Assembly: GCF_900637635.1 (NCBI RefSeq)
Contig: NZ_LR134383.1
Span: forward strand, 1,829,501-1,893,500
Direction: 5' to 3'
DNA from: Legionella jordanis
GTDB taxonomy: Bacteria > Pseudomonadota > Gammaproteobacteria > Legionellales > Legionellaceae
Length of the DNA stretch: 64,000 nt
In this document: one piece after another, positions 50,082-61,288 of the stretch
Layout of the letters: every line of letters starts with the position of its first letter
Numbering within the stretch: position 1 is the first letter of the stretch
Position numbers and translations under genes: made by a program
The notes under the pieces: generated by a model
Seen by the model: only the letters and a program-made list of their open reading frames with translations
Database searches by the model: none
Told to the model about the DNA's origin: nothing

Positions 50082-50301
50082 TTCAAATCGTTTGAATGAG
50101 GCAGTAATTACCCATTAGAGGACTTAATTTTCTGATGGATATCAGCAAGACATCACTCATGGCTGGAATATCAATTCATAGTCTATAGCAAAACATAAGT
50201 TTACACAGAGTTATCAACAGAAAATGTGAATAACTCGTCGCTGTCGCGAAATGATTTGCTTACAAAATAATCGATAAATCCTAATTTAACGCATTAACGC
50301 C

Positions 50302-51839
50302 TGGCTAAAATCAGAGTGAACCCATCCATCTCAATCATGCCAATTGCATGCTCATTTTTTCGATAATATTTGCATTATTTGCTGCAATATTATTCACTAC
50401 ATCAACTTTTGGACGTACCTCGCCTGCAAGACAACGAGTAAGCTGCCTTAAATTGAATCCAAATACAGCGGCGTAACCAGCGCTTTTAGTGGTTGCATCA
50501 GATTTCATGCGGCTTCTGCCCAATTGGCCGCCCTGTTTCGTGTGACCAATCAAAGGCTCAATACCAGCACGTCGATGATGCAATAACTGCCTGATTGTCC
50601 ATGGCGTTGTTTCACGAGCCGCATTGAGCGTCCTATCAGGACGGGGTAATTGAATATCAAGGACGCCTTTTTCAATCAATAGTTGTTCGTTGTTCAATGA
50701 ATAATATCCTTTATCTGTCGCAACCGATGCCAGCAACCCCTTTCCAAAAAGATACTCATGAGTATTGAGCATCATCGGTAAAGACTGGGCATCTGGCATA
50801 TAAGTAGACGTGCATTCGCCAACAAAAAGAAAATTACCCCCAATACGTCCTAATTGATAAGCGCGACCAAACTGCACTCCTTTATTTAATTTACCTTTGT
50901 TAAAACAGCCGACTTCATAAGCATGCAATGAAGAAATCGATGTATTGATAATGCCTTCAAAAAGATAACCATGTACATTCTGTAATAACATAGTCCCGCG
51001 CCAGCTCAGCGTCTCGACAGAGCGGCGAAGCGACCAATATTTACCCGATGCCAACTGATTACCAAACAAATAGATATCATTTAAGATAGGCAGTACATCG
51101 GCATACGTTTCACGCCATAACCGCTGAAGCACCACGGATAATATACCCTCACCAACATCCTTACGTTTCAAATTAAAATAATACAGTGCGATTTGTTTTA
51201 AATTGCTTAGCCCAACATGGTAACGCTTTATGCCACCACAGCACAATTGATTCAGTCCTTTTCCAACCTTTGACGCAAGAACAGCAACCTTGACCAATAA
51301 ATTGGCAATTGCGGGATAGGCTATATTAGCTTCTTGCACGGTAGAGTCAATATCAAGCACCTGGGGATTAGCGTAATTTAGTTTAACAGCTTGTTGTGTT
51401 ATCAAATTGGCAAGTCGGCGCTGCGTTTCAGGGCTTAATCGAGAACGAAATGCCTCAATTTTGGTATGGTCTGGCGCATGCCATTTCTTGATGAGGCCAT
51501 AACCACAAAACAATTGAAAGGCGGCATTATCTCGTACTTGTTGTTCTGTTGCACGGTCAGTGAGGTTAAACATCTGTTGTAAAATATAAACACCAAGATG
51601 AATGCGTATGCGCAAGGGCCTACCCATCCACCAATGTTTTCTATCCGTACGTTGTAAATCGGGCAATACTAATTTCAGCATCTCCTCCCAGGGAAGTTTC
51701 TGGGCCAGCTTCATCAGGCGATGGTCATTGCTGATTGCAATGGTGACGCTGTCACCTGCGACCGGTTCATCGAAGCCATCTACATCTAAACTCATTGTTT
51801 ACTTATATCCTCTTTATCGTGCCGTTCTTTGTTTAGCCA
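50302..51839 (-). mobile_element. IS5-family-like insertion sequence
   Basis: The element contains one transposase gene and ends in short imperfect inverted repeats beginning TGGCTAAA at 50302 and TTTAGCCA at 51839. A CC dinucleotide flanks both ends and may be a 2-bp target duplication. The right end lies inside the last codons of the reverse transcriptase frame, showing insertion into the 3' end of the retroelement. The exact ends are my reading and are not certain. Confidence 0.55.
50335..51795 (-). CDS. IS5-family DDE transposase
   Basis: 486 residues. An N-terminal DUF772-like domain (YILQQMFNLTDRATEQQVRDNAAFQLFCG) is followed by DDE residues in DIDSTVQEANIAYP, ASVATDKGYYS and the glutamate of RRAGIEPLIGHTKQGGQLGRS. 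It is full length with no frameshift, so the element may be active. It lies 19 bp downstream of the reverse transcriptase stop, same strand. Confidence 0.9.
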   Translation of the reverse strand: MSLDVDGFDEPVAGDSVTIAISNDHRLMKLAQKLPWEEMLKLVLPDLQRTDRKHWWMGRPLRIRIHLGVYILQQMFNLTDRATEQQVRDNAAFQLFCGYGLIKKWHAPDHTKIEAFRSRLSPETQRRLANLITQQAVKLNYANPQVLDIDSTVQEANIAYPAIANLLVKVAVLASKVGKGLNQLCCGGIKRYHVGLSNLKQIALYYFNLKRKDVGEGILSVVLQRLWRETYADVLPILNDIYLFGNQLASGKYWSLRRSVETLSWRGTMLLQNVHGYLFEGIINTSISSLHAYEVGCFNKGKLNKGVQFGRAYQLGRIGGNFLFVGECTSTYMPDAQSLPMMLNTHEYLFGKGLLASVATDKGYYSLNNEQLLIEKGVLDIQLPRPDRTLNAARETTPWTIRQLLHHRRAGIEPLIGHTKQGGQLGRSRMKSDATTKSAGYAAVFGFNLRQLTRCLAGEVRPKVDVVNNIAANNANIIEKMSMQLA

Positions 51840-53013
51840 CCAACTTGGCGCATCCGCCACTGAAAAACATCAAATTCCACCACCAAATGGATAAGTGCTT
51901 TTTGAGCATGCCTTTTCTTAGGCGATACGTCTGGTAATGACTTAAAATCCCAAGATAAGAGTTGATAGAACATAAAAAGGCCATTTGCTCCTCTTTCGTG
52001 GGTTTATGGTCTTTAGCTACTGCATTATGCTTTGTAATGGCGTCATAAAAGTTTCCTTTGATGCGACGACCGGCATAGATGCAGTGTGGTTTGAGAATCA
52101 CCCCAAGAAAAGGAATGCCTTTGCAATAATGCTGCAGGTATCGCTTGCGCGGATGAAGCTCGAGTTCGAGCTCTTCTTGCAAAAACCGCTCCATTTGAGG
52201 TATGAGTGATTTTAAAAACATTTTATCTTCGTGCACCAGAAGAAAATCATCGACGTAACGGCCATAGAAACGCACACCCAAATCGTGTTTGATATAATGG
52301 TCAAAAGGATTTAAATAAAAATTGGCAAACACCTGGCTTGTGAGGTTTCCAATCGGCAGTCCGCAGTAGTGTCTGGCATAAAAAAGGCTCTTGTCTTTGG
52401 GGAAATCCTGCCAATCACGCCGTTTCCCCTTGATAAAACAGTGGCTTGTTGGCTCATTTTCAACGATTTTTCTGGCTACCTCCAGGATTAATTTCTTATC
52501 GGATTGGTTATAATGCCTCTCGATAAAGCAGCGAAGGCCTTCCCAGAGAATACGTCGATTAATGCGGATGAAAAAACTCATGATATCGAGTTTTAGCACG
52601 TAGCAGTCTCTTTGGTAATTTAAGGAGCATTTGCGGATAAATTGTGCGGCACGTGCAATCCCCAGATGCGCGCCTCGTCCTTTGCGGCTCGCATAGCTGT
52701 CATAAATAAAGGTTTTCTCAAACAGCGGATTCAATTGATTAATTAACCAGTGATGCACCACACGGTCACGAAAGTCTGCTGCAAAGATTTCGCGTTTCAC
52801 CGGTTTATCAATCACAAAAGCAATGGAGCGTCCAGGATGCCAGGTGCCGGAATTGAGCTCCTCTCGCAAAGCGATGATATTGCTTTCATAATCCGTTTCA
52901 AAGCGGAGCGCATTCATGGTATTGCGTTTGTTCTTGCGGCAATCAAAATAGGCCTGGAACAAGGATTCCGGTGTCGCGCCGTGCTCCCTATGGTTATGCT
53001 CTTTTTCTCCCAT
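51814..53013 (-). CDS. Reverse transcriptase of a diversity-generating retroelement
   Basis: 399 residues. The RT palm has KLDIMSFFIRINR, the DGR-type motif GLPIGNLTSQVFANFYLNPFDHY and the catalytic YVDD at 253-256, then thumb-like LHPRKRYLQHYCKGIPFLG. No maturase or integrase domain is present, as in DGR enzymes. It copies the TR RNA with errors opposite adenines, in complex with the Avd protein. The last seven codons (AKQRTAR) fall inside the terminal repeat of the adjacent IS. Removing the IS and one CC duplication would give the ending KLALMR instead, so the core is intact and loss of activity is not expected from this alone. Confidence 0.95.
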   Translation of the reverse strand: MGEKEHNHREHGATPESLFQAYFDCRKNKRNTMNALRFETDYESNIIALREELNSGTWHPGRSIAFVIDKPVKREIFAADFRDRVVHHWLINQLNPLFEKTFIYDSYASRKGRGAHLGIARAAQFIRKCSLNYQRDCYVLKLDIMSFFIRINRRILWEGLRCFIERHYNQSDKKLILEVARKIVENEPTSHCFIKGKRRDWQDFPKDKSLFYARHYCGLPIGNLTSQVFANFYLNPFDHYIKHDLGVRFYGRYVDDFLLVHEDKMFLKSLIPQMERFLQEELELELHPRKRYLQHYCKGIPFLGVILKPHCIYAGRRIKGNFYDAITKHNAVAKDHKPTKEEQMAFLCSINSYLGILSHYQTYRLRKGMLKKHLSIWWWNLMFFSGGCAKLVAKQRTAR

Positions 53014-53083
53014 AGCTTATCCCAATAAAGTGGTGTGGGCCTGTTAATGCCCACACCGATTGTGACTTTGCTTTGTTTAAAAC

Positions 53084-53225
53084 CCCGGACACACCTAACC
53101 CGAAGATTGTTGTTCTTATTGTCGTCGTTCTGGTTGCCATTGTTGAAGTTCTGGTTCCAGGCGTTATTCGTAGGGTTGCCGGAAAACTCGGTAGAACTCC
53201 AGTAGTTGTCATTGGAAAAACCGCC
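53084..53225 (-). repeat. DGR template repeat (TR)
   Basis: 142 bp that align without gaps to the 3' end of the target gene (53796-53937). On the coding strand it is full of AAC/AAT codons. I count 43 adenines, 24 of which differ in VR, against one difference at the other 99 positions. The 3' end reads GTGTCCGGGG, against GTGTCCGGGC in VR, the kind of IMH*/IMH difference that marks donor and recipient. It lies 70 bp upstream of the RT start and belongs to the template RNA. Confidence 0.95.
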
Positions 53226-53250
53226 CTAAACAATCAATAAAGGCGTTTTG

Positions 53251-53276
53251 GTCAGCACAAGGCTCCTTGTACTGAC
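53251..53276 (-). repeat. Hairpin just upstream of the TR
   Basis: On the minus strand GTCAGTACAAGG and CCTTGTGCTGAC form a 12-bp stem with one G-U pair, 25 bp before the TR in the direction of transcription. It may fold or bound the template RNA, or end the avd transcript. Confidence 0.5.
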
Positions 53277-53362
53277 GCGAATCAACTGCCGAGGCAGTCC
53301 CTTTATCGCTTTTAAACAAAAGCATGCTCGCTCATGAATGCCATAACACCCATGATTCCGGC

Positions 53363-53704
53363 TTATCGACTGGCATTACGCCAGCCGGTCACCTGTTTGC
53401 CTATGCGTGTCAAGAGTTCACTTAACAGGGCTTGCCTTTTAAGTGATATCAGTTTCATCTCAACACAGAGGCGAATTTCCAGTTTCAATAACTCCAACTC
53501 ATCTAAAAACGCCTCCAAATGCTCTACTCTGTTTTGATGCTTGTTGGCCCGGTAAATACAACGAAGCAAATGAAGGGCATCGCGCTTCATGTCCTGGCCC
53601 AGGGTGTATTTGTATTCCCTTGGGAAATTCTTTGTTTCTTCAAACACCTTTAACACCAGCTGGTAACTGTCCTTGTAAACCGGTAACTCCGTATAGAAAG
53701 CCAT
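53363..53704 (-). CDS. avd: DGR accessory variability determinant (Avd-like four-helix protein)
   Basis: 113 residues and all helical, with basic surface stretches (FPREYKYTLGQDMKRDALHLLRCIYRANKHQNRVEHLEAFLDELELLKLEIRLCVEMKLIS). This is the four-helix-bundle pattern of Avd/S23-like proteins. Avd forms a pentameric barrel that binds the RT and the template RNA and is required for mutagenic cDNA synthesis. Its position between target and TR is the common DGR order. Confidence 0.88.
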   Translation of the reverse strand: MAFYTELPVYKDSYQLVLKVFEETKNFPREYKYTLGQDMKRDALHLLRCIYRANKHQNRVEHLEAFLDELELLKLEIRLCVEMKLISLKRQALLSELLTRIGKQVTGWRNASR

Positions 53705-53741
53705 TCACAAAATCCAACTCATTCATCTTTTAAAAAATCAT

Positions 53742-53760
53742 GAGGCAGCTAAGCTGCCTC
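53742..53760 (-). repeat. Hairpin/cruciform downstream of the VR
   Basis: GAGGCAGC-TAA-GCTGCCTC is an 8-bp perfect inverted repeat with a 3-nt loop, 35 bp past the end of VR and 21 bp past the target stop. Short GC-rich hairpins at this place assist target recognition in DGRs; it may also terminate the target transcript (TTTTTT follows a few bases on). Confidence 0.65.
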
Positions 53761-53781
53761 AAAAGAAAAGGGATAAAGGGT

Positions 53782-55335
53782 TTAAGGGGTAAAAGCCCGG
53801 ACACACCTAACCCGAAGATCGAAGAACTTAACGTCGTCGAGCTGGAAGCCACTGTCGAAGAACTGGTCCCAGGCGAAGAACGTAGGGTTGCCGGAAAACT
53901 CGGTAGAACTCCAGTAGCCGACATCGGAAAAACCGCCAATGGCATTTCTGTTAAACCACAAACAGTCTAGCTGGGATGTTGGGTTTGCCGGAATACCAGA
54001 TACAGCCGGTGATGCTGGCAAAAACCAATCGTCATAGCAGGTGTTTCCTGCCTGACAAGGGGTATTGCCTTGAGAATCCACTTCAAAGTTACTGCAAATT
54101 CCCGCAGCGTAAGTGTTGGCATTAATATTCATTGGACAGCCTGCGCCACCTCCAGGCCCTGTTAAGCAGGCAACAATGGCTGCGGTATTACTGGCACCGT
54201 CGGTATTGCTTTGCGCCACAGCACCAACAGCCACACCAAATCCTCCCCATTGAATAGCTGTGCTGTTATCGGCAGTGGCGGCAATCAGATTGTTCAATCC
54301 CCCGTTCAGGCAAGCAATCGTGCCACCAAAAGCCGACTGTCCGACTGCGGTGGCCATATAAGTATAGCCATTAGCCAGTGTGGCACCACCCGCCGGCGTA
54401 TTAATCACGACATCGACAGCTCCTGCAACATGGGCAGGCGTGACCCCGGTTACCGTCGTAGAGTCGACGACATTAACACTGGTTGCTGCTACTCCATCAA
54501 AGGTGACACTCGTGGCACCTGTTAAACCAGTCCCCGTTAAGGTAAAACCCGTTCCCCCTGATGCCGTTCCTGAGTTTGGGTTGATGGCGGTCAGCGTACT
54601 GCCTGATTGAATGGCAATGGCTGCTGCCAGTGCATTGGTATTGGTGCCCTGGATGGTGAAATTCGTTTGCGGTACCACCGTGTTGCCTGGCGTGTAAGTC
54701 AGTGTACAACTGCCTCCTGGCGGCACATTCGCACAGGTATTGCCTGTTTCGGTGACATTGCCATCCAACGCTGTCCCTGTGAAATTGGAGGTGATGTTGG
54801 TGGCTGCCACCTCAAGGGTCGTGTTGGTAATCGTGAGCTGCCCCATTGGACCATTTACCGTGAGTGTTAAAGGAGACCCTATGACGGTAATCACCGCATC
54901 CGTTATCGGTGGCGCCTGGGTGATGCGCAAAATATTGGCGCTACCTGGCCGATAACACTGATTGGGGTTTCCTTGCTGGCAAACCACGGGACCACCCGTA
55001 ATGGGGCCATTTAACTGACTGCCATTTATCTGTAAAGACAGTACGCAGGAATTCTTGCCTCTGAGCACAAAAGGATTGCCGCACACATTGAGCCCTGTAG
55101 TGATTTGCGCAATGCCCCGAATGGGCTGCATGCTTAAGGTGTGTGGCTTGCTGGATTGATTGGTGACTCGATATTGCACCATGGCGGTACCATTGGCAGG
55201 CACTGCAATCGTGGTGGCTGTCAGTGGCTCAAAGGTCCACAATGGGGTCCCTGCATAAGCCGTTGTCATCATGAGTCCTAACCACAAGAAAGCCAGTATC
55301 CTATTCATTAAAGTATTTTTGATAGTTTTTTGCAT
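53782..55335 (-). CDS. Secreted DGR target protein with variable C-type-lectin-like (DUF1566-type) domain
   Basis: 517 residues. The signal peptide (MNRILAFLWLGLMMTTAYAG) has no lipobox. Then come Legionella-style beta-rich domains with paired cysteines, an IPT/TIG domain (about 245-330, LTAINPNSGTASGGTGFTLTG), and a C-terminal FGE/C-lectin-like domain (about 335-514) with DDWFLPAS and YWSSTEFSG before the variable stretch. VR codes for residues about 467-513; 15 codons differ from TR, mostly AAY changed to Phe, Asp, Gly, Leu, Val or Ser. Invariant Trp, Gly and Arg codons hold the fold. The closing RVRCVRAF is typical of this domain. The gene follows the barrel gene by 11 bp. Confidence 0.9.
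   Translation of the reverse strand: MQKTIKNTLMNRILAFLWLGLMMTTAYAGTPLWTFEPLTATTIAVPANGTAMVQYRVTNQSSKPHTLSMQPIRGIAQITTGLNVCGNPFVLRGKNSCVLSLQINGSQLNGPITGGPVVCQQGNPNQCYRPGSANILRITQAPPITDAVITVIGSPLTLTVNGPMGQLTITNTTLEVAATNITSNFTGTALDGNVTETGNTCANVPPGGSCTLTYTPGNTVVPQTNFTIQGTNTNALAAAIAIQSGSTLTAINPNSGTASGGTGFTLTGTGLTGATSVTFDGVAATSVNVVDSTTVTGVTPAHVAGAVDVVINTPAGGATLANGYTYMATAVGQSAFGGTIACLNGGLNNLIAATADNSTAIQWGGFGVAVGAVAQSNTDGASNTAAIVACLTGPGGGAGCPMNINANTYAAGICSNFEVDSQGNTPCQAGNTCYDDWFLPASPAVSGIPANPTSQLDCLWFNRNAIGGFSDVGYWSSTEFSGNPTFFAWDQFFDSGFQLDDVKFFDLRVRCVRAFTP
53796..53937 (-). repeat. DGR variable region (VR)
   Basis: 142 bp at the 3' end of the target gene, gap-free copy of the TR with 25 differences, 24 of them at template adenines. 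It ends at the IMH (CGGGTTAGGTGTGTCCGGGC), 11 bp before the stop codon. Confidence 0.95.
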
Positions 55336-55346
55336 GGTTTCTATCC

Positions 55347-56096
55347 TTAAGCCACATAAGTGAGGTTAAACAATACGCCATTAGTGTAGAGGTGATTGAG
55401 CGCTAATCCTGAATTCATGGTCTGCCCAAAAGCACGTCCCAGTTCGCTTTTACCCCAGTCGGCAAACTCATAACCAACCCCCAATTGCCAATGTTCGCTG
55501 ATGGGTTTTTGCACGCCAGCACCCAGCGTGTAGGTGAAGGCTGTTTTCGTGTGGTCTTCAAAGTTATTATTAGGCAGCGCCTCAAAAATCAAAGGCGTAT
55601 TCGTAAAATCATGGACACGGTTAAAGCCAACACCTAGGCTTGCGCTCACCCAGGGCATAACCCAATAGCCTTTATCAAGTAACAGCTTGCCTTTTACTGC
55701 CACGCGAGAGTTTCGGACTTTGTAAAGGTAGCTGTAATTATCAAATTGAGGGTCGGCATCATCCCATATCACACCCTGCAGTTTGGCATTGCCAGTAGCG
55801 GCGGCCGCCAATCCCAATTGCCCTAACCATTGAGAAGTCAATGATTTTTGTATGCCTACAAACAGCTCGCCCGAGGCAATAGCATTGGTGGATTTTCTAG
55901 CCGCATACGTCTTTTCAATTTCTGGGGCCAGAAAAAAAGTCTGCGTCTCACCGCCTCTTGCCCAAACGGGCCCCGCGCTCACAGAACCAACCCAGGTCCA
56001 GTCCCTGGAAGACATAACAGGCCCCATGGTGCCCGCAAAGGCTGTACTTCCCAACACACTGGCTGTTGCTATAGAAAGAAATAAACGATACTTCAT
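55347..56096 (-). CDS. Outer-membrane beta-barrel protein (Opa/OmpA-like porin fold)
   Basis: 249 residues from the ATG at 56096, preceded by AAGGAG. The signal peptide ends at TAFAG. The mature part has amphipathic strands with aromatic girdles and a typical barrel ending (TNGVLFNLTYVA). It resembles 8-stranded surface barrels that are abundant in Legionella. It lies 11 bp before the DGR target gene and shares its transcript, so it may help to display or tether the target protein; that is inference. Confidence 0.82.
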   Translation of the reverse strand: MKYRLFLSIATASVLGSTAFAGTMGPVMSSRDWTWVGSVSAGPVWARGGETQTFFLAPEIEKTYAARKSTNAIASGELFVGIQKSLTSQWLGQLGLAAAATGNAKLQGVIWDDADPQFDNYSYLYKVRNSRVAVKGKLLLDKGYWVMPWVSASLGVGFNRVHDFTNTPLIFEALPNNNFEDHTKTAFTYTLGAGVQKPISEHWQLGVGYEFADWGKSELGRAFGQTMNSGLALNHLYTNGVLFNLTYVA

Positions 56097-56300
56097 AAGC
56101 GCTCCTTGCAAAGTAAAAACGATTTATTATGTGAAAATAGGAAGCAGTCAGCGGCAATCGATTGGCATAACATGGGAGTGAATGCACGAACGCGTAGCAT
56201 AGGATAAAAACTGAGCAAAGAGATGAGACAAGTCCCTGGGTAAAGGAAAGAAACACAGTAAAATATAATGGAGCAAAATGAAAATAAGGGAAAATCTAGT

Positions 56301-56328
56301 GCTGATTGCTGATTGCTGATTGCTGATT
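56301..56328 (+). repeat. Heptanucleotide tandem repeat
   Basis: Four perfect copies of GCTGATT, followed by a partial fifth. It lies between the IS481-like element and the barrel gene, about 205 bp upstream of the barrel start. Confidence 0.85.
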
Positions 56329-56354
56329 GCTGGCAATGGTCCAGTCATTTGTAG

Positions 56355-57543
56355 TAGTTCCAACTTGATCTGACAGTTACCGGTTTTTAAGAAGTGTCTG
56401 TCAGGTCAAATTTAGTTTATAAATTTTTCCATCCAGATTTGTTTAGCCTCTATCAAAGTTTGCATTGGAGTACGTCCACAACACATTTTACCCTGATGAG
56501 TACGTTGATTATTATAGTAATCCATCCATTCGTCCAGATCTTTTTGCAATTCATCGATTGATTCGTAAATTTTCTTTCGGAATGTTACTTGATAAAACTC
56601 CTGTAAAATCGTTTTATGAAAACGTTCACAAATCCCATTTGTTTGGGGTGAATTTGCTTTTGTCTTTGTATGGTCAATGTTATTAATTGCCAAATAAAGC
56701 TGATAATCATGCTGTTCTACCTTGCCACAATATTCAGTACCCCTATCTGTTAAAATACGCAGTATAGGTAAATCGTGTTGTTCGAAGAAGGGTAAAACCT
56801 TATCGTTCAGTAAATCTGCTGAAGTAATTGGCGTTTTAGTCGTATAAAGCTTGGCAAATGCCACTTTACTATAGGTATCAACAAAAGTTTGCTGATAAAT
56901 GCGACCGACTCCTTTAAGCGTACCCACATAAAAAGTATCTTGCGAGCCGAGGTAACCAGGATGTGCTGTTTCGATTTCACCACATGCCTCATCATCAAAT
57001 TTCTTTTTCTCCAAAGCTACGACCTGCGCTTCCGTCAATATAATTCCTTCAGAAGCTACTTTAGCCTCTAATGCTTTTAAGCGGTCTTTAAAATTGGCAA
57101 GCTCATATCGCAGCCAAATGCTACGAACTCCACTTGGAGAAACAAAAATACCCCGTTTACGAAGCTCATTGCTCGTACGAAGCTGACCATGGGCTGGAAA
57201 TGCGATCGCATACTCCCTTACCGAGAGTTCAATTGCTTCTTCTACTCTATTTTTTAGATTAGGTTTTCTTCGGCTTTGATCGAATAAAGCATCAACTCCT
57301 CCCGATTCTACTGCCGACTTATAGCGATAAAATGTATCTCTGGATAAGCCCATTACTTTACATGCCTTAGATACATTCCCTAATTCTTCAGCAAGGTTTA
57401 ATAAGCCAACTTTATGTTTAATAATTTTAACTGTATTATCTATCATGAGAGTTTTCCTTTTGGTTTTGTTTCAAGTTCGCACTTCTATCAAAACCGGAAA
57501 CTCTCTCTTTTTCAAGTACTTGTGTCAGATTAAGTCGAAACTA
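56355..57543 (-). mobile_element. IS481-family-like insertion sequence
   Basis: About 1.19 kb with one transposase gene. The inverted repeats match at 18 of 21 positions (TAGTTCCAACTTGATCTGACA at 56355 against the complement of the stretch ending at 57543), and a second inner pair TT-CCGGTTTT/AGAAGTG supports the ends. No clear target duplication is seen. Confidence 0.7.
56412..57446 (-). CDS. IS481-family transposase
   Basis: 344 residues. The N-terminal helix-turn-helix (NVSKACKVMGLSRDTFYRYKSAV) is followed by an rve-type DDE core: D in QQTFVDTYSKVAFA, D in LTDRGTEYCG, and E in NGICERFHKTIL. It is full length and looks intact. The element closes the DGR region on its right side. Confidence 0.92.
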   Translation of the reverse strand: MIDNTVKIIKHKVGLLNLAEELGNVSKACKVMGLSRDTFYRYKSAVESGGVDALFDQSRRKPNLKNRVEEAIELSVREYAIAFPAHGQLRTSNELRKRGIFVSPSGVRSIWLRYELANFKDRLKALEAKVASEGIILTEAQVVALEKKKFDDEACGEIETAHPGYLGSQDTFYVGTLKGVGRIYQQTFVDTYSKVAFAKLYTTKTPITSADLLNDKVLPFFEQHDLPILRILTDRGTEYCGKVEQHDYQLYLAINNIDHTKTKANSPQTNGICERFHKTILQEFYQVTFRKKIYESIDELQKDLDEWMDYYNNQRTHQGKMCCGRTPMQTLIEAKQIWMEKFIN

Positions 57544-57785
57544 ATTCAAGTCATTGGACGTTATGAGCAAGTCTTGTTTGATAGCTAACAAATAGTTCAT
57601 TCCCTGCACCAGCATCCTTTATGTTATTTAATATTGAAAAACCATTTCAAATTATGATACTTTGTTAATGATTGAAAATCAAAAAATTCAGTCGATTTTT
57701 ATCCATCAAACGCACCCCAAACATTTAGCGACACCGACTAACTCTGTACTGAGTTCGAGGAAGCAGCATGAAAGTTGACTTTTTC

Positions 57786-60023
57786 TTAGCTATTCTTGAT
57801 TTGTTCAATGGTTGAAAGGCAAACTTCGATTTCAGACACCTTTTGAGCAGTTTCGGGAGCAAAAAAGAAATAACGGCCTTTAGTTGCTTTATTCACCAAT
57901 AGAGCAAGTCCATAAAACAGCCCACCTGTCGCTAAAGCCAGAAGAATATTTCCCAGGATTTGTTTACATAATCCCCAGGATTCACGGTGTTGTTCAAAAA
58001 TCTTTTCTGAATTTTTAATGGCTAAAATGCTGTTTTGCTGAAAAGAAGAGTAATCAAATTGTCTTTTTCCCGATTCCAGAAAATTGGCAAATAAATCCAT
58101 CAATCTAAGCTGTAGATTGTCTGCTGCTTCAGAAGCTCTCGTATAATTGGGATCAACTTTGGCTTTTTCGAATAAAACTTTGGTTTTTTTTTCAAATTTA
58201 TTTAGGAGATCGAGGTAAGCCTCCTCCTGGGGCGTTAAAACAAATTGTGCGATTCGAAATCGAATTTCCTCTCGTCCTATCCCTAATTCATTGAGCATCG
58301 AAAGCTCTTGAGCAACCAATGCGGATTCCGCATCGGTTTCATCATAGGATGAACCAGTTCCATTTGGCCCATGTAAAGGCTCTGTTTTCGAAGGAATTGC
58401 GACCAGGGCCATTGAAGACTCCAGTATAGAAGAAGATGGTTCGGATGTTTTTTGAACAGGAACCTGATTCACCCGCTCATCGACAGCTAGTTCTTTTTCC
58501 CTGACTATGGGTGACTTCGTAGCTTGGCATTCTTTAGCAGAGGTCTGGGAACTCACCCCATTAGCAGATTTGATAGCCGCACTAGGAATGACTGCTTGGC
58601 GCTCCTCGCGGGGACTCGTTTTAAATCCAGATTGTAGTTCTTTTAGTCGCCTTACCAGCTCCTCTATTGGATTTAATCCAAAAAGCTCTTCTTGCGAAAA
58701 GGTAGCCAAGACCAGAAAAGCAGGATGATGTCGGGCCAGATCGCGCTTGTTCTCAATCGTTAAACTTCGACTCCCTGTCTCTTGCAACAAGACCTCCCAG
58801 CGTTCGATCTCATCATGCTGATCCATATATAATTTTTTTTGACTGGCATACTGTCGCAGCATGGCCTGCGTTTTTTCAGTTGCCACAATGTAAAAATGCC
58901 CTTGTCTGATGCTGAGACCCAATTCCAGTTCTGGCGAGCTCTTGGGTTTAAGGATGACCTCCGCACTTTCGTAGGCGTAGACTGCGTAGGAAAATAGCTG
59001 AGAGACAACAGAATCAACGTCTCCATAGGAAATTTTCACGCCATTTTTACTTAAGTAAGCCAAATAATTTCCGTAGCCTTCTTTTACCCAATACTCTTCA
59101 GGGTCATGATCTTGCAAACCGCCATTGATTAAGTTATTGAAGAAGGCTTGATTGGCCGCATAAATGGGATTTAAGGGCTCCTTAACGCTCATGAGAAAAG
59201 ATTTAAGGTTATGTTGGCAATCTAAATTAATTTCTAAATATCCTGCAGCTTTAAGCACCATCTCGGAGGCGTTTTTGTTTTGAACTTCAGCGATTGTTTT
59301 TATTATTTCTGCACATTTTTTCTTTGTAAAACCAATAGCTTTCCCGGCTAAGTCCAGCGCCTCTTTCTGATTGTTGATGCTGGGTTTAAACTGACCCAAA
59401 AGCTCTATTTGTTCTGCAGTGGCCTTTAAAATATTCTGCATGGAGCTCTCCAATTCAGGAGAGTCTATCTGCCCGCTAGCAACTATCAGATATTTCTGAG
59501 CTTCCATCAATGCGTTAAGGCCAAACCGAATGGGAGCAATTGAGTCCTTTAGCGCCTCTTCCTGACAGTACTCTACCAGGCGCAAAAAGGTTAGGCGCCG
59601 CTCATCCATGTCAAGGTTATCATTGTGAACAAAACGAGCTTTGCAACTCTCAGGATTATCCAGTTTTTGAATTACCCAGCTACGAAACAAAATACCTAAA
59701 ATTAACGTTTTTTCAAAAATATACTTAGTGGAAGCTGGAAGTTTCTTTTGTTCCTGTTTAGAGTTGTTGGCCCGGAATTGTTCATAAGCTTCAAAAAAGC
59801 GATGAAACTCCTCTTCATTTTGAAAAAATTGCTTTAGTTTGAGGAGAGTTGCATCATCGCGAGGGAATTCTTGAAACAAGTCGTTTGGCAAAGCCAAGCT
59901 ATTGCACAAATAGTGAAGCGCCAAACAATTGAAGAAACAATTTTCCATGACCGCGGAAACACTGACGGCCTGACTCATTTTGTCTCTTATCAGAAGTTTT
60001 TGTGCACTTTCAGAATGCAACAT
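57786..60023 (-). CDS. Large protein with OTU-like N-terminal motifs and a C-terminal membrane segment, candidate Dot/Icm effector
   Basis: 745 residues with no signal peptide. Near the N-terminus MENCFFNCLALHYL (Cys29) resembles the DGNCLF catalytic loop of OTU cysteine proteases, and GHFYIVAT with H376 resembles the late histidine strand. Between them EYWVKEGYGNYLAYLSKNGVKISYGDVD is reminiscent of the OTU-type effector core. Residues about 460-560 are a Ser/Glu-rich linker, and a hydrophobic stretch (LGNILLALATGGLFYGLALLV) lies near residue 705. A PmrA-type box covers its -35 region. Enzyme class and effector status are inference from motifs. Confidence 0.65.
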   Translation of the reverse strand: MLHSESAQKLLIRDKMSQAVSVSAVMENCFFNCLALHYLCNSLALPNDLFQEFPRDDATLLKLKQFFQNEEEFHRFFEAYEQFRANNSKQEQKKLPASTKYIFEKTLILGILFRSWVIQKLDNPESCKARFVHNDNLDMDERRLTFLRLVEYCQEEALKDSIAPIRFGLNALMEAQKYLIVASGQIDSPELESSMQNILKATAEQIELLGQFKPSINNQKEALDLAGKAIGFTKKKCAEIIKTIAEVQNKNASEMVLKAAGYLEINLDCQHNLKSFLMSVKEPLNPIYAANQAFFNNLINGGLQDHDPEEYWVKEGYGNYLAYLSKNGVKISYGDVDSVVSQLFSYAVYAYESAEVILKPKSSPELELGLSIRQGHFYIVATEKTQAMLRQYASQKKLYMDQHDEIERWEVLLQETGSRSLTIENKRDLARHHPAFLVLATFSQEELFGLNPIEELVRRLKELQSGFKTSPREERQAVIPSAAIKSANGVSSQTSAKECQATKSPIVREKELAVDERVNQVPVQKTSEPSSSILESSMALVAIPSKTEPLHGPNGTGSSYDETDAESALVAQELSMLNELGIGREEIRFRIAQFVLTPQEEAYLDLLNKFEKKTKVLFEKAKVDPNYTRASEAADNLQLRLMDLFANFLESGKRQFDYSSFQQNSILAIKNSEKIFEQHRESWGLCKQILGNILLALATGGLFYGLALLVNKATKGRYFFFAPETAQKVSEIEVCLSTIEQIKNS

Positions 60024-60200: not shown

Positions 60201-60235
60201 TCTTATCTGCCTTTTTATTGTTCAAAGGAATTGAT

Positions 60236-61288
60236 TTGAAAATTTTATTTATTAACATTGCTGATCACAAACCATTAGGGATTAAAGCAGTTGAGGCACT
60301 CACAAAAAAATATCACCCCTCATTTTTCGAAGCCAAAAGCAAAACAAAAATTACAACATTACATTTAATGCATGAAGCCATTGAATTTGCCAAATCCGGC
60401 TCACTCAAACTCTCTGATACAGACTATAAAACCCTGGAGTTTTGGCTTAAAAATCGTAAAGCCCATTACAAAATTATTATCGGTGCACATGGCCAAAAAG
60501 ATGATGTCGATTTCTGCTATGCACAAAGCGATGAAATAGACATTTTAAAGGCAAACAAATTGCTCTCTGCTGAACAATTAGCTCATTTCATGGCAAGCAT
60601 ATTCCGAATAGTTCCCGCTTCGAGGAAATCCCCCGTCTTCACAGTAACGCTTAGCATTTGCTACGGCGCCAGAAGCGAAGAATTCGACAGAGATCACATT
60701 CAGGAATTTTCAACCATTAACTGGCAGAGCAGCTTGGCAGCAAAAGTCTATGCACATCTGATCCAGTATTTTCCTATTAAAATGAAGGCAGCTACAGGTG
60801 CAGTTGAATTTGATACAAAAAATGGAAATTTGCTAATAGAAAGTGAAGAGGCACTGCGAGCTCATCAAAAATTTATAGAAATAGCCAGACAATTGCGGAC
60901 GTTTGAAAATGAAAAAATAAAACCCCTAGCGAAAGAATACATTGCAAGATATGGCGAGAGGAAGTGGTTGGATTATGAAAAAAAAATGGAATACAAACGC
61001 GGTGAAACAGCTCTTGATAAAGTGTTTTTAGAATTTGAACCTATGAAAGAAAATCTTGAAATAATTCGTGAGTTAAAGAGCCAGAACAGTAAAAAAGATT
61101 ATGGCCAAGTTGTTTTTAACTTTGATAAAAAATCAGAGCAAGTTATCATTCACCTTAAGCATGGGGGAAAGCAAATGTTGCTGGTCAAAAATACCAGGGC
61201 AAATTTTGTGGAATCCTGTTTGCAAAATGCAGTTTCTGAGCAAGCCAAAGGACTTCTGGACTTGGAAATTCCAGGTTTTTTTAACTAA
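60236..61288 (+). CDS. Caspase-clan-like cysteine protease candidate, possible Dot/Icm effector
   Basis: 350 residues. I start at the TTG at 60236 because AAGGA lies 6 nt upstream and the product begins MKILFINIADHKPLG; a TTG at 60218 is also in frame. The motif IIGAHGQKDDV (His85) followed after about 57 residues by TVTLSICYGARS (Cys142) is the HG...C-G arrangement of clan CD peptidases (caspase, clostripain, CPD). The C-terminal 150 residues are charged helix. There is no signal peptide. Promoter region carries a PmrA-like repeat, and the divergent neighbour is another effector candidate. I cannot name a family; activity is unproven. Confidence 0.65.
   Translation: MKILFINIADHKPLGIKAVEALTKKYHPSFFEAKSKTKITTLHLMHEAIEFAKSGSLKLSDTDYKTLEFWLKNRKAHYKIIIGAHGQKDDVDFCYAQSDEIDILKANKLLSAEQLAHFMASIFRIVPASRKSPVFTVTLSICYGARSEEFDRDHIQEFSTINWQSSLAAKVYAHLIQYFPIKMKAATGAVEFDTKNGNLLIESEEALRAHQKFIEIARQLRTFENEKIKPLAKEYIARYGERKWLDYEKKMEYKRGETALDKVFLEFEPMKENLEIIRELKSQNSKKDYGQVVFNFDKKSEQVIIHLKHGGKQMLLVKNTRANFVESCLQNAVSEQAKGLLDLEIPGFFN

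What the first reader, a model, noticed from the sequence alone, without database searches (positions are those of the whole stretch)
51814..55335. Complete diversity-generating retroelement with direct evidence of adenine mutagenesis
TR (53084-53225) and VR (53796-53937) align over 142 bp with no gap. I count 25 differences; 24 are at TR adenines on the coding strand and only one elsewhere. RT, Avd-like protein, TR, VR, IMH/IMH* difference and a post-VR hairpin are all present in canonical order. Fifteen codons of the lectin-like domain have been rewritten, mostly AAY to hydrophobic or acidic residues, while Trp/Gly/Arg scaffold codons remain. Legionella DGRs with a lipoprotein target have been described; this target has a signal peptide but no lipobox, plus an IPT/TIG domain and a barrel partner, so it may be a different kind of target.
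Basis: partly seen in the sequence, partly recalled or inferred. Interest (0 to 1): 0.88.

Follow-up and report, generated by a model that had tools for sequence, protein, structure and literature searches.

The report
Jumping gene that rewrites its receptor
In this Legionella-family bacterium a complete gene-hypermutating system is carried inside a self-moving DNA element; a related bacterium holds five near-identical copies that differ almost only in the rewritten part of one surface-type protein, so one cell could build up a set of different receptors.

Summary
The diversity-generating retroelement (DGR) is real: TR and VR differ at 25 of 142 positions, 24 at TR adenines, with open RT and Avd genes, a post-VR hairpin and an Lcl_C/DUF1566-type target. 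The DGR is cargo of a 7,502-bp transposon (50237-57738) with 17-bp terminal inverted repeats, a 6-bp target duplication and its own transposase as last gene of the operon. The genome holds three copies, each with a perfect, different 6-bp duplication; two of the sites are uninterrupted in relatives. Related elements occur across the family. Genome G096 holds five copies: in all 10 pairs the VR differences (22, 2 or 0) fall only on TR adenines, and the three uninterrupted full-length copies have no substitution in the other ~6,150 bp. So rewriting and transposition are both recent there. In the window's genome the three VRs are identical; current activity is not shown. 15 of 26 transposase-side ends abut a DnaA-box-like palindrome. 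Hitchhiking of DGRs on transposons was proposed before; the literature listings and passages I saw describe no bounded, autonomous DGR transposon.

The parts
50237..57738 (-). DGR-carrying unit transposon, 7,502 bp; operon reads on the minus strand: barrel-like protein, target, Avd, TR, RT, transposase
   Evidence: Three copies in the genome; 2 substitutions separate this copy from each of the others inside the element
50231..50236 (.). target site duplication TAACTC, transposase side
   Evidence: Perfect match to 57739-57744
57739..57744 (.). target site duplication TAACTC, far side
50237..50253 (+). terminal inverted repeat GTCGCTGTCGCGAAATG
   Evidence: Six matches in the genome at up to 2 mismatches, all exact, two per copy; the reversed control pattern has 5 matches at up to 2 mismatches
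57722..57738 (-). terminal inverted repeat GTCGGTGTCGCTAAATG (15 of 17 identical to the other end)
50211..50233 (.). DnaA-box-like palindrome at the insertion site, part of the target, not of the element
   Evidence: absent beside the copies L021 and L022
50335..51795 (-). DDE-type transposase, IS5/ISNCY-like; starts 18 bp after the RT stop codon behind a ribosome-site-like AGAGGA
   Evidence: Pfam DUF772 2.8e-13; NCBIfam IS5_1 and ISNCY_1 below their cut-offs; DIDST, TDKGY, RAGIEPLIGHTK and the junction (reading as DDE motifs is recalled)
51814..53013 (-). DGR reverse transcriptase
   Evidence: RVT_1 1.8e-18; 8ub7 2.6e-36; IGNLTSQ, YVDD
53084..53225 (-). template repeat (TR); the repeat extends to 53078 with one further mismatch
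53363..53704 (-). Avd accessory protein
   Evidence: bAvd 7.3e-21, above cut-off
53741..53761 (.). post-VR hairpin, 9-bp stem, 3-nt loop
   Evidence: A hairpin of 6-9 bp was found within 110 bp after the VR in 13 of 16 loci tested; none in L074, L097, L102
53796..53937 (-). variable region (VR), last part of the target gene
53782..55335 (-). target protein: signal-peptide-like N-terminus (by eye), TIG domain, C-terminal Lcl_C-type domain that holds the VR
   Evidence: TIG 1.2e-10; Lcl_C only 0.011 alone, below cut-off; 8q4e 2.2e-14 with the family profile
55347..56111 (-). small outer-membrane-barrel-like protein (ATG at 56096 is a likely start)
   Evidence: OMP_b-brl 0.00019, below its cut-off
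56339..57559 (-). secondary insertion sequence (integrase-core transposase ORF 56412-57446) nested in the element
   Evidence: rve/rve_3; 37-nt imperfect inverted repeats, 78% complementary; missing from the L. tunisiensis copy

Best explanation
This is an autonomous DNA transposon whose passenger is a complete DGR. Shown by sequence: defined ends, target duplications, own transposase, three copies here, empty sites in relatives for two of them, and adenine-templated rewriting of the VR. Shown in a related genome: copies that differ only by adenine-templated VR changes, so rewriting occurred after the copies separated. Inferred: the operon is co-transcribed; the transposase moves the unit as a whole, mostly next to DnaA-box-like palindromes; TR RNA is copied by RT-Avd with errors at adenines and the cDNA replaces the VR of a copy, in cis or in trans; the rewritten Lcl_C-type domain is shown at the cell surface, perhaps with help from the barrel protein, and binds variable partners; several copies give one cell a small set of different receptors. 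The confidence given is for the shown parts; display and repertoire are less sure.
For: Three copies in the own genome, 2 substitutions each inside the element, duplications TAACTC, CCCTTA, GAGATA. Sites of L022 and L021 uninterrupted in two and one genomes of the genus. Of 16 elements with both ends and both 6-bp flanks in one locus, 10 have a perfect duplication (9 of 13 with DGR parts, 1 of 3 with transposase only); the L. tunisiensis element, split over two contigs, adds one. In G096 the VRs of all 10 pairs of the five copies differ only at TR adenines (six pairs 22, three pairs 2, one pair 0); between L069, L070 and L071 no substitution lies outside the VR; the second block of L068 has 22 of 22 mismatches to L069 in the VR. 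TR identical in 5 of 5 copies. Adenine-biased repeats in 30 of 34 loci scanned, not all independent. RT-transposase order kept down to 62-69% RT identity.
Against: In the window's genome the VR is the same in 3 of 3 copies, so no rewriting since the last transposition is seen there, unless a repeat-collapsed assembly hides it. 3 RT loci of the same clade lack the transposase despite 3.4-9 kb of downstream sequence (L024, L095, L107), so the link is not obligatory. 6 of 16 elements lack a perfect duplication. The barrel gene gave no match in several related elements (for example L025, L026, L078, L081). Surface display, ligand and in-trans action are untested. No structure model could be made.
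Confidence: 0.93

Rival explanations
1. An ordinary DGR that merely lies between two unrelated insertion sequences; the copies arose by segmental duplication.
For: Transposase genes flank the cassette on both sides, and DGR neighbourhoods often hold transposases (PMC7517822 passages).
Against: Copies end at the terminal repeats, flanks are unrelated, each has its own duplication, and two sites are empty in relatives. The same RT-transposase order and ends recur in other genera.
Confidence: 0.02
2. A live transposon with a DGR that is now silent in this strain: the VR was fixed before the three copies spread, and the element moves as an ordinary IS with passengers.
For: 3 of 3 VRs identical while 2 substitutions separate the window copy from each of the others; these leave the transposase protein unchanged.
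Against: RT, Avd and target are open and the TR is present; the related G096 elements rewrote VRs with no other substitution. Very recent transposition explains identity as well.
Confidence: 0.25
3. A selfish element: VR diversity mainly helps the element and gives the host no receptor repertoire.
For: The L021 and L022 sites lie inside ORFs in relatives; decayed or deleted copies occur (L029, L031, L084).
Against: Many elements of other genera keep a signal-peptide-like target and the scaffold of the variable domain, and a part of them the barrel gene.
Confidence: 0.3
4. VR differences in G096 come from gene conversion or sequencing error rather than retrohoming.
For: VRs fall into two groups shared between loci.
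Against: All differing VR sites are TR adenines and no substitution lies in about 6.15 kb outside; 22 of 22 in the VR by chance has P about 1e-35.
Confidence: 0.03

Closest known systems
Bordetella phage BPP-1 DGR (recalled; RT structure 8ub7 matched)
   Same: RT, Avd, TR, VR, hairpin, adenine mutagenesis, lectin-like variable domain
   Different: Phage tail protein target; moves with the phage, no transposase in the operon
Legionella pneumophila DGR (Arambula 2013; paper not held, seen only as cited in passages of PMC8144416, PMC8867640, PMC8987985)
   Same: Same bacterial family, surface-type target
   Different: Lipoprotein target; here no Cys in the first 40 residues, a TIG domain, a barrel-like neighbour and a transposon around it. 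Direct sequence comparison was not made
Thiohalocapsa PB-PSB1 DGR loci (PMC10907252, passages read)
   Same: Several DGR loci per genome, duplicated, transposons nearby; cargo transport proposed there
   Different: There duplicated parts and MITE-like remains; here a bounded unit with its own transposase, duplications and copies that differ only in the VR
DGRs near Tn7-type or other transposases, DiGReF survey (PMC3521204, passages read)
   Same: DGRs proposed to hitchhike on transposons
   Different: Inferred from neighbourhood in those passages; here ends, duplications and empty sites are shown
IS1202 group / ISNCY insertion sequences (PMC10132070, passages read)
   Same: Single large transposase, short target duplication, insertion at a fixed place beside a chromosome-biology site
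   Different: They target dif sites with 5-bp duplications; the word passenger does not occur in that paper; kinship to that group was not tested
Transporter IS and IStrons (recalled; only the start of an IStron abstract seen)
   Same: An IS that carries another kind of element or passengers
   Different: Passenger here is a DGR

Membership tests
Diversity-generating retroelement | RT with DGR-type motif (xGxxxSQ) and YxDD | tested here: met
   IGNLTSQ at 221, YVDD at 253; 8ub7 match. DiGReF names the SQ dipeptide (section title seen)
Diversity-generating retroelement | TR and VR that differ almost only at TR adenines | tested here: met
   24 of 25
Diversity-generating retroelement | Accessory protein Avd | tested here: met
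   bAvd above cut-off; NCBIfam model below cut-off
Diversity-generating retroelement | IMH at the VR end differing from IMH* of the TR, and a hairpin after it | tested here: inconclusive
   One G>C, then loss of similarity; 9-bp hairpin. Their function was not tested
Diversity-generating retroelement | Ongoing VR rewriting | tested here: inconclusive
   Seen in the relative G096, not in the window's genome
DDE transposon / insertion sequence | Terminal inverted repeats at both ends | tested here: met
   15 of 17 bp alike; 6 exact ends for 3 copies; reversed control 5 at up to 2 mismatches
DDE transposon / insertion sequence | Target site duplication of fixed length | tested here: met
   6 bp, perfect in 3 of 3 copies here and in 10 of 16 elements with both flanks
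DDE transposon / insertion sequence | Empty sites in relatives | tested here: met
   L022 site in G004 and G021, L021 site in G012, at about 65-67% identity; not tested for the window copy
IS5 or ISNCY family | NCBIfam family score above cut-off | tested here: not met
   IS5_1 155 of 275 bits; ISNCY_1 108.9 of 325 bits: like these, not filed in either
Lcl_C (DUF1566) domain | Pfam score above cut-off | tested here: inconclusive
   Window target 16.5 of 34.9 bits; of 5 related targets scanned one, L026, passes with 36.5 bits; profile to 8q4e E 2.2e-14
Lipoprotein target | Lipobox cysteine | tested here: not met
   No Cys in residues 1-40

The most novel reading that the evidence does not exclude
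A transposon family in which the transposase has become a gene of the DGR operon, so that transposition multiplies the receptor gene and retrohoming makes the copies different: a self-amplifying, self-diversifying receptor repertoire inside single bacterial cells, with landing sites chosen beside DnaA-box-like palindromes.
Probability: 0.4. Interest if true: 0.93.

Novelty: new variant of a known kind. Interest (0 to 1): 0.83.

Why it matters
DGRs are thought to spread by riding phages, plasmids and, by inference, transposons. Here the vehicle is seen whole: ends, duplications, transposase and cargo. Near-identical copies that differ only in the VR form a natural experiment which separates targeted hypermutation from all other mutation without any culture work. 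It also gives a way by which a bacterium could hold several independently diversified receptors at once, and it makes the question of how DGRs spread between bacteria directly testable in public genomes.

Tried and rejected
Chance neighbourhood of a DGR and insertion sequences: rejected by ends, duplications, copies and empty sites. Plasmid or phage vehicle: of 86 plasmid and 104 phage records with an RT match none reaches 60% identity (records near the own genome may be left out of those collections); the transposase hits one plasmid record, in part, at E 1e-20. Remote VRs elsewhere in the genome: none besides 3 VRs and 3 TRs. Idea that the DnaA-box-like palindrome is part of the element: rejected, absent beside L021 and L022. 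One gain of the transposase on the RT tree: not supported; the label needs at least 2 changes on starred branches, 5 on the best tree. Transposase outside the family: of 369 class genomes, drawn from a larger group, 2 match at E 1e-40, one of them the own genome.

Structure prediction of the target: asked eleven times; the queue was full each time; no model, no fold search.
Full report
Observation. TR 53084-53225 and VR 53796-53937 on the minus strand differ at 25 of 142 positions; 24 are TR adenines (43 adenines in the TR; P 1.8e-14; 15 A>T, 8 A>G, 1 A>C, 1 T>C), and 15 codons of the target change. Order on the coding strand: barrel-like protein, target with VR, Avd, TR, RT. RT carries IGNLTSQ and YVDD; its family profile finds the solved RT 8ub7. 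Avd scores above the Pfam bAvd cut-off, below that of NCBIfam. A 9-bp hairpin follows the VR at 53741-53761.

The larger unit. The RT occurs three times in the own genome at 100% identity. The copies cover about 7.5 kb and differ from the window copy by 2 substitutions each inside the element (positions 51388 and 51565); the transposase proteins are identical. They end in GTCGCTGTCGCGAAATG and GTCGGTGTCGCTAAATG. A search with a pattern made from these two ends, at up to 2 mismatches, gives six places, all exact and two per copy; the reversed control gives 5 places at up to 2 mismatches. The element is 50237-57738, 7,502 bp. Each copy is flanked by its own perfect 6-bp duplication: TAACTC, CCCTTA, GAGATA. 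Empty sites: 22 genomes of the genus, the own one included, were searched with one flank. For L022 three other genomes match; in two, G004 and G021, a single alignment runs across the junction, while in G002 it does not reach it. For L021 one other genome, G012, matches and its alignment runs across the junction. Identities are 65-67%. The window site was not tested. The transposase gene (50335-51795) starts 18 bp after the RT stop and is the last gene of the operon. It has DDE-type motifs (their reading is recalled) and resembles IS5 and ISNCY transposases without reaching either cut-off.

A family. Of 143 genomes of the family, 42 have a match to the transposase at E 1e-3, many of them pieces, and 23 to the RT profile at E 1e-12. 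Of 16 elements with both ends and both 6-bp flanks in one locus, 10 have perfect duplications: WIN, L021, L022, L025, L073, L074 (inner of its two left ends), L078, L083, L084, L088. The six others are L029 (decayed), L069-L071 (a group II intron sits at one edge), L075 (2 mismatches) and L085 (1 mismatch); L026 runs off its contig. L. tunisiensis, split over two contigs, has TAAGAC on both sides. Elements of 1.6-1.9 kb with the transposase alone (L075, L083, L085) suggest that the DGR was added to a plain IS (inference). The two elements of G025 have transposases 95% identical but RTs 72% identical, and at DNA level two stretches of 83% and 87% with no match between them at E 1e-10: mosaicism. 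In an RT tree of 23 rows a branch with 99/97 support holds 16 family rows, 12 with the transposase; of the 4 without, L024, L095 and L107 have 3.4-9 kb of downstream sequence, L111 only 219 bp.

Activity. Repeats with adenine bias (P under 1e-4) were found in 30 of 34 loci scanned, not all independent; none in L029, L078, L084, L100. In L095 most differing letters are N, so that case is not sound, and L108 has 16 of 41 differences away from adenines. The decisive case is G096, a genome in three contigs, of another genus of the family, with five copies on its largest contig. TR is identical in 5 of 5. The VRs of the 10 pairs differ at 22 (six pairs), 2 (three pairs) or 0 (one pair) positions, all at TR adenines. 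Among the three uninterrupted copies with both ends (6,308, 6,308 and 6,336 bp) no substitution lies outside the VR; one 28-bp gap separates L071 from L069. L069 and L072 differ at 22 positions over 8,072 bp, all in the VR; L070 and L072 do not differ over 8,072 bp. L068, whose avd is interrupted by a 3.8-kb insert, matches L069 without a mismatch over 3,274 bp and has 22 mismatches over the other 3,039 bp, 22 of 22 in the VR. Chance of 22 of 22 in the VR is about 1e-35. Up to 15 amino acids differ, all within residues 469-502 of 513. So rewriting happened after these copies separated. Copies at different places share or nearly share a VR (L070/L072; L069/L071), so transposition also followed some rewriting (inference). 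Against: in the window's genome VRs are identical in 3 of 3 copies; either the copies are very young, the DGR is silent, or the assembly merged them.

Target. One TIG domain. Lcl_C is weak for the window protein alone (E 0.011, below cut-off); of 5 related targets scanned one passes the cut-off (L026, 36.5 bits). The family profile matches 8q4e at E 2.2e-14; [quoted passage not shown] The N-terminus looks like a signal peptide without a lipobox (by eye; no Cys in 40 residues). Surface display and ligands are inference. The barrel-like gene precedes the target in the window element and several relatives, but gave no match in L025, L026, L078 and L081.

Landing sites. 15 of 26 transposase-side ends have TGTGGATA with at most one mismatch in the 16 bp before the end (0.5% of 20,000 random window stretches do), and all 15 also show a loose match, up to 5 mismatches, to TTATCCACAGAAnnTGTGGATAA. 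In the own genome a like palindrome pattern has 8 matches at 6 places at up to one mismatch, none for the reversed control. The 26 ends include degenerate and transposase-only copies and are not all independent. 11 of 26 do not fit, among them L021 and L022. That the half site equals the DnaA box is recalled; why it is used is unknown.

Literature. Ten searches, of which eight bore on DGRs and mobile elements or on Legionella DGRs, one on the target and one on DnaA boxes. I saw the listings, cut at 10-30 rows in several (one search listed 20 of 420), and passages of PMC8144416, PMC8867640, PMC7517822, PMC3521204, PMC10907252, PMC12875486 and PMC8987985. PMC3521204 and PMC10907252 propose that transposons carry DGRs or parts of them; PMC7517822 finds transposases nearby. 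None of these passages describes a bounded DGR transposon. Arambula 2013 and Wu 2017 are not held and were not read; papers outside the library may describe it.

Verdict. DGR: certain. DGR as cargo of an autonomous transposon: near certain. Activity in the family: strong; in this strain: open. Role as a receptor set: plausible, untested. New variant of a known kind.

Noticed in passing
L069 7658-9470, L070 7803-9615, L126: A group II intron (Rfam RF01999, RF00029; copies matched by blastn) sits at the outer edge of a terminal repeat in the five G096 copies, on the far side in three and the transposase side in two, as if the terminal repeat were its homing site; in L070 it splits the duplication TAAGTT, in L069 the two flanks do not match.
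   Followed up: partly
L072: One of the five G096 copies shows no terminal repeat on the transposase side.
   Followed up: no
window 56339-57559: An integrase-core insertion sequence is nested in the element in all three own copies; the L. tunisiensis element lacks it.
   Followed up: partly
L027 4424-4431, L026 132-139, L079 1639-1646: Two element ends stand back to back with 6 bp between them, so a second element seems to have landed at the very edge of the first.
   Followed up: partly
L025 4960-6609, L026 1324-2976: In the two G025 elements an ORF that looks by eye like an asparagine synthase stands upstream of the target in place of the barrel gene; genes beside L025 look like a lasso-peptide cluster (by eye).
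   Followed up: no
L084 6491-8850: A 2,360-bp derivative with both ends and a perfect duplication that keeps only pieces of target, Avd and transposase.
   Followed up: no
L096-L099, L102: Bacteroidota MAGs carry RTs 55-63% identical to the window's RT; no transposase match was seen in these loci, though L096 ends soon after the RT. All five show adenine-biased repeats.
   Followed up: partly
window 57786-60023 and 60218-61288: Two long ORFs beside the element without a Pfam match at E 1e-3.
   Followed up: no
L021 and L022 insertion sites: Both other copies lie at places that are inside ORFs in other members of the genus.
   Followed up: partly
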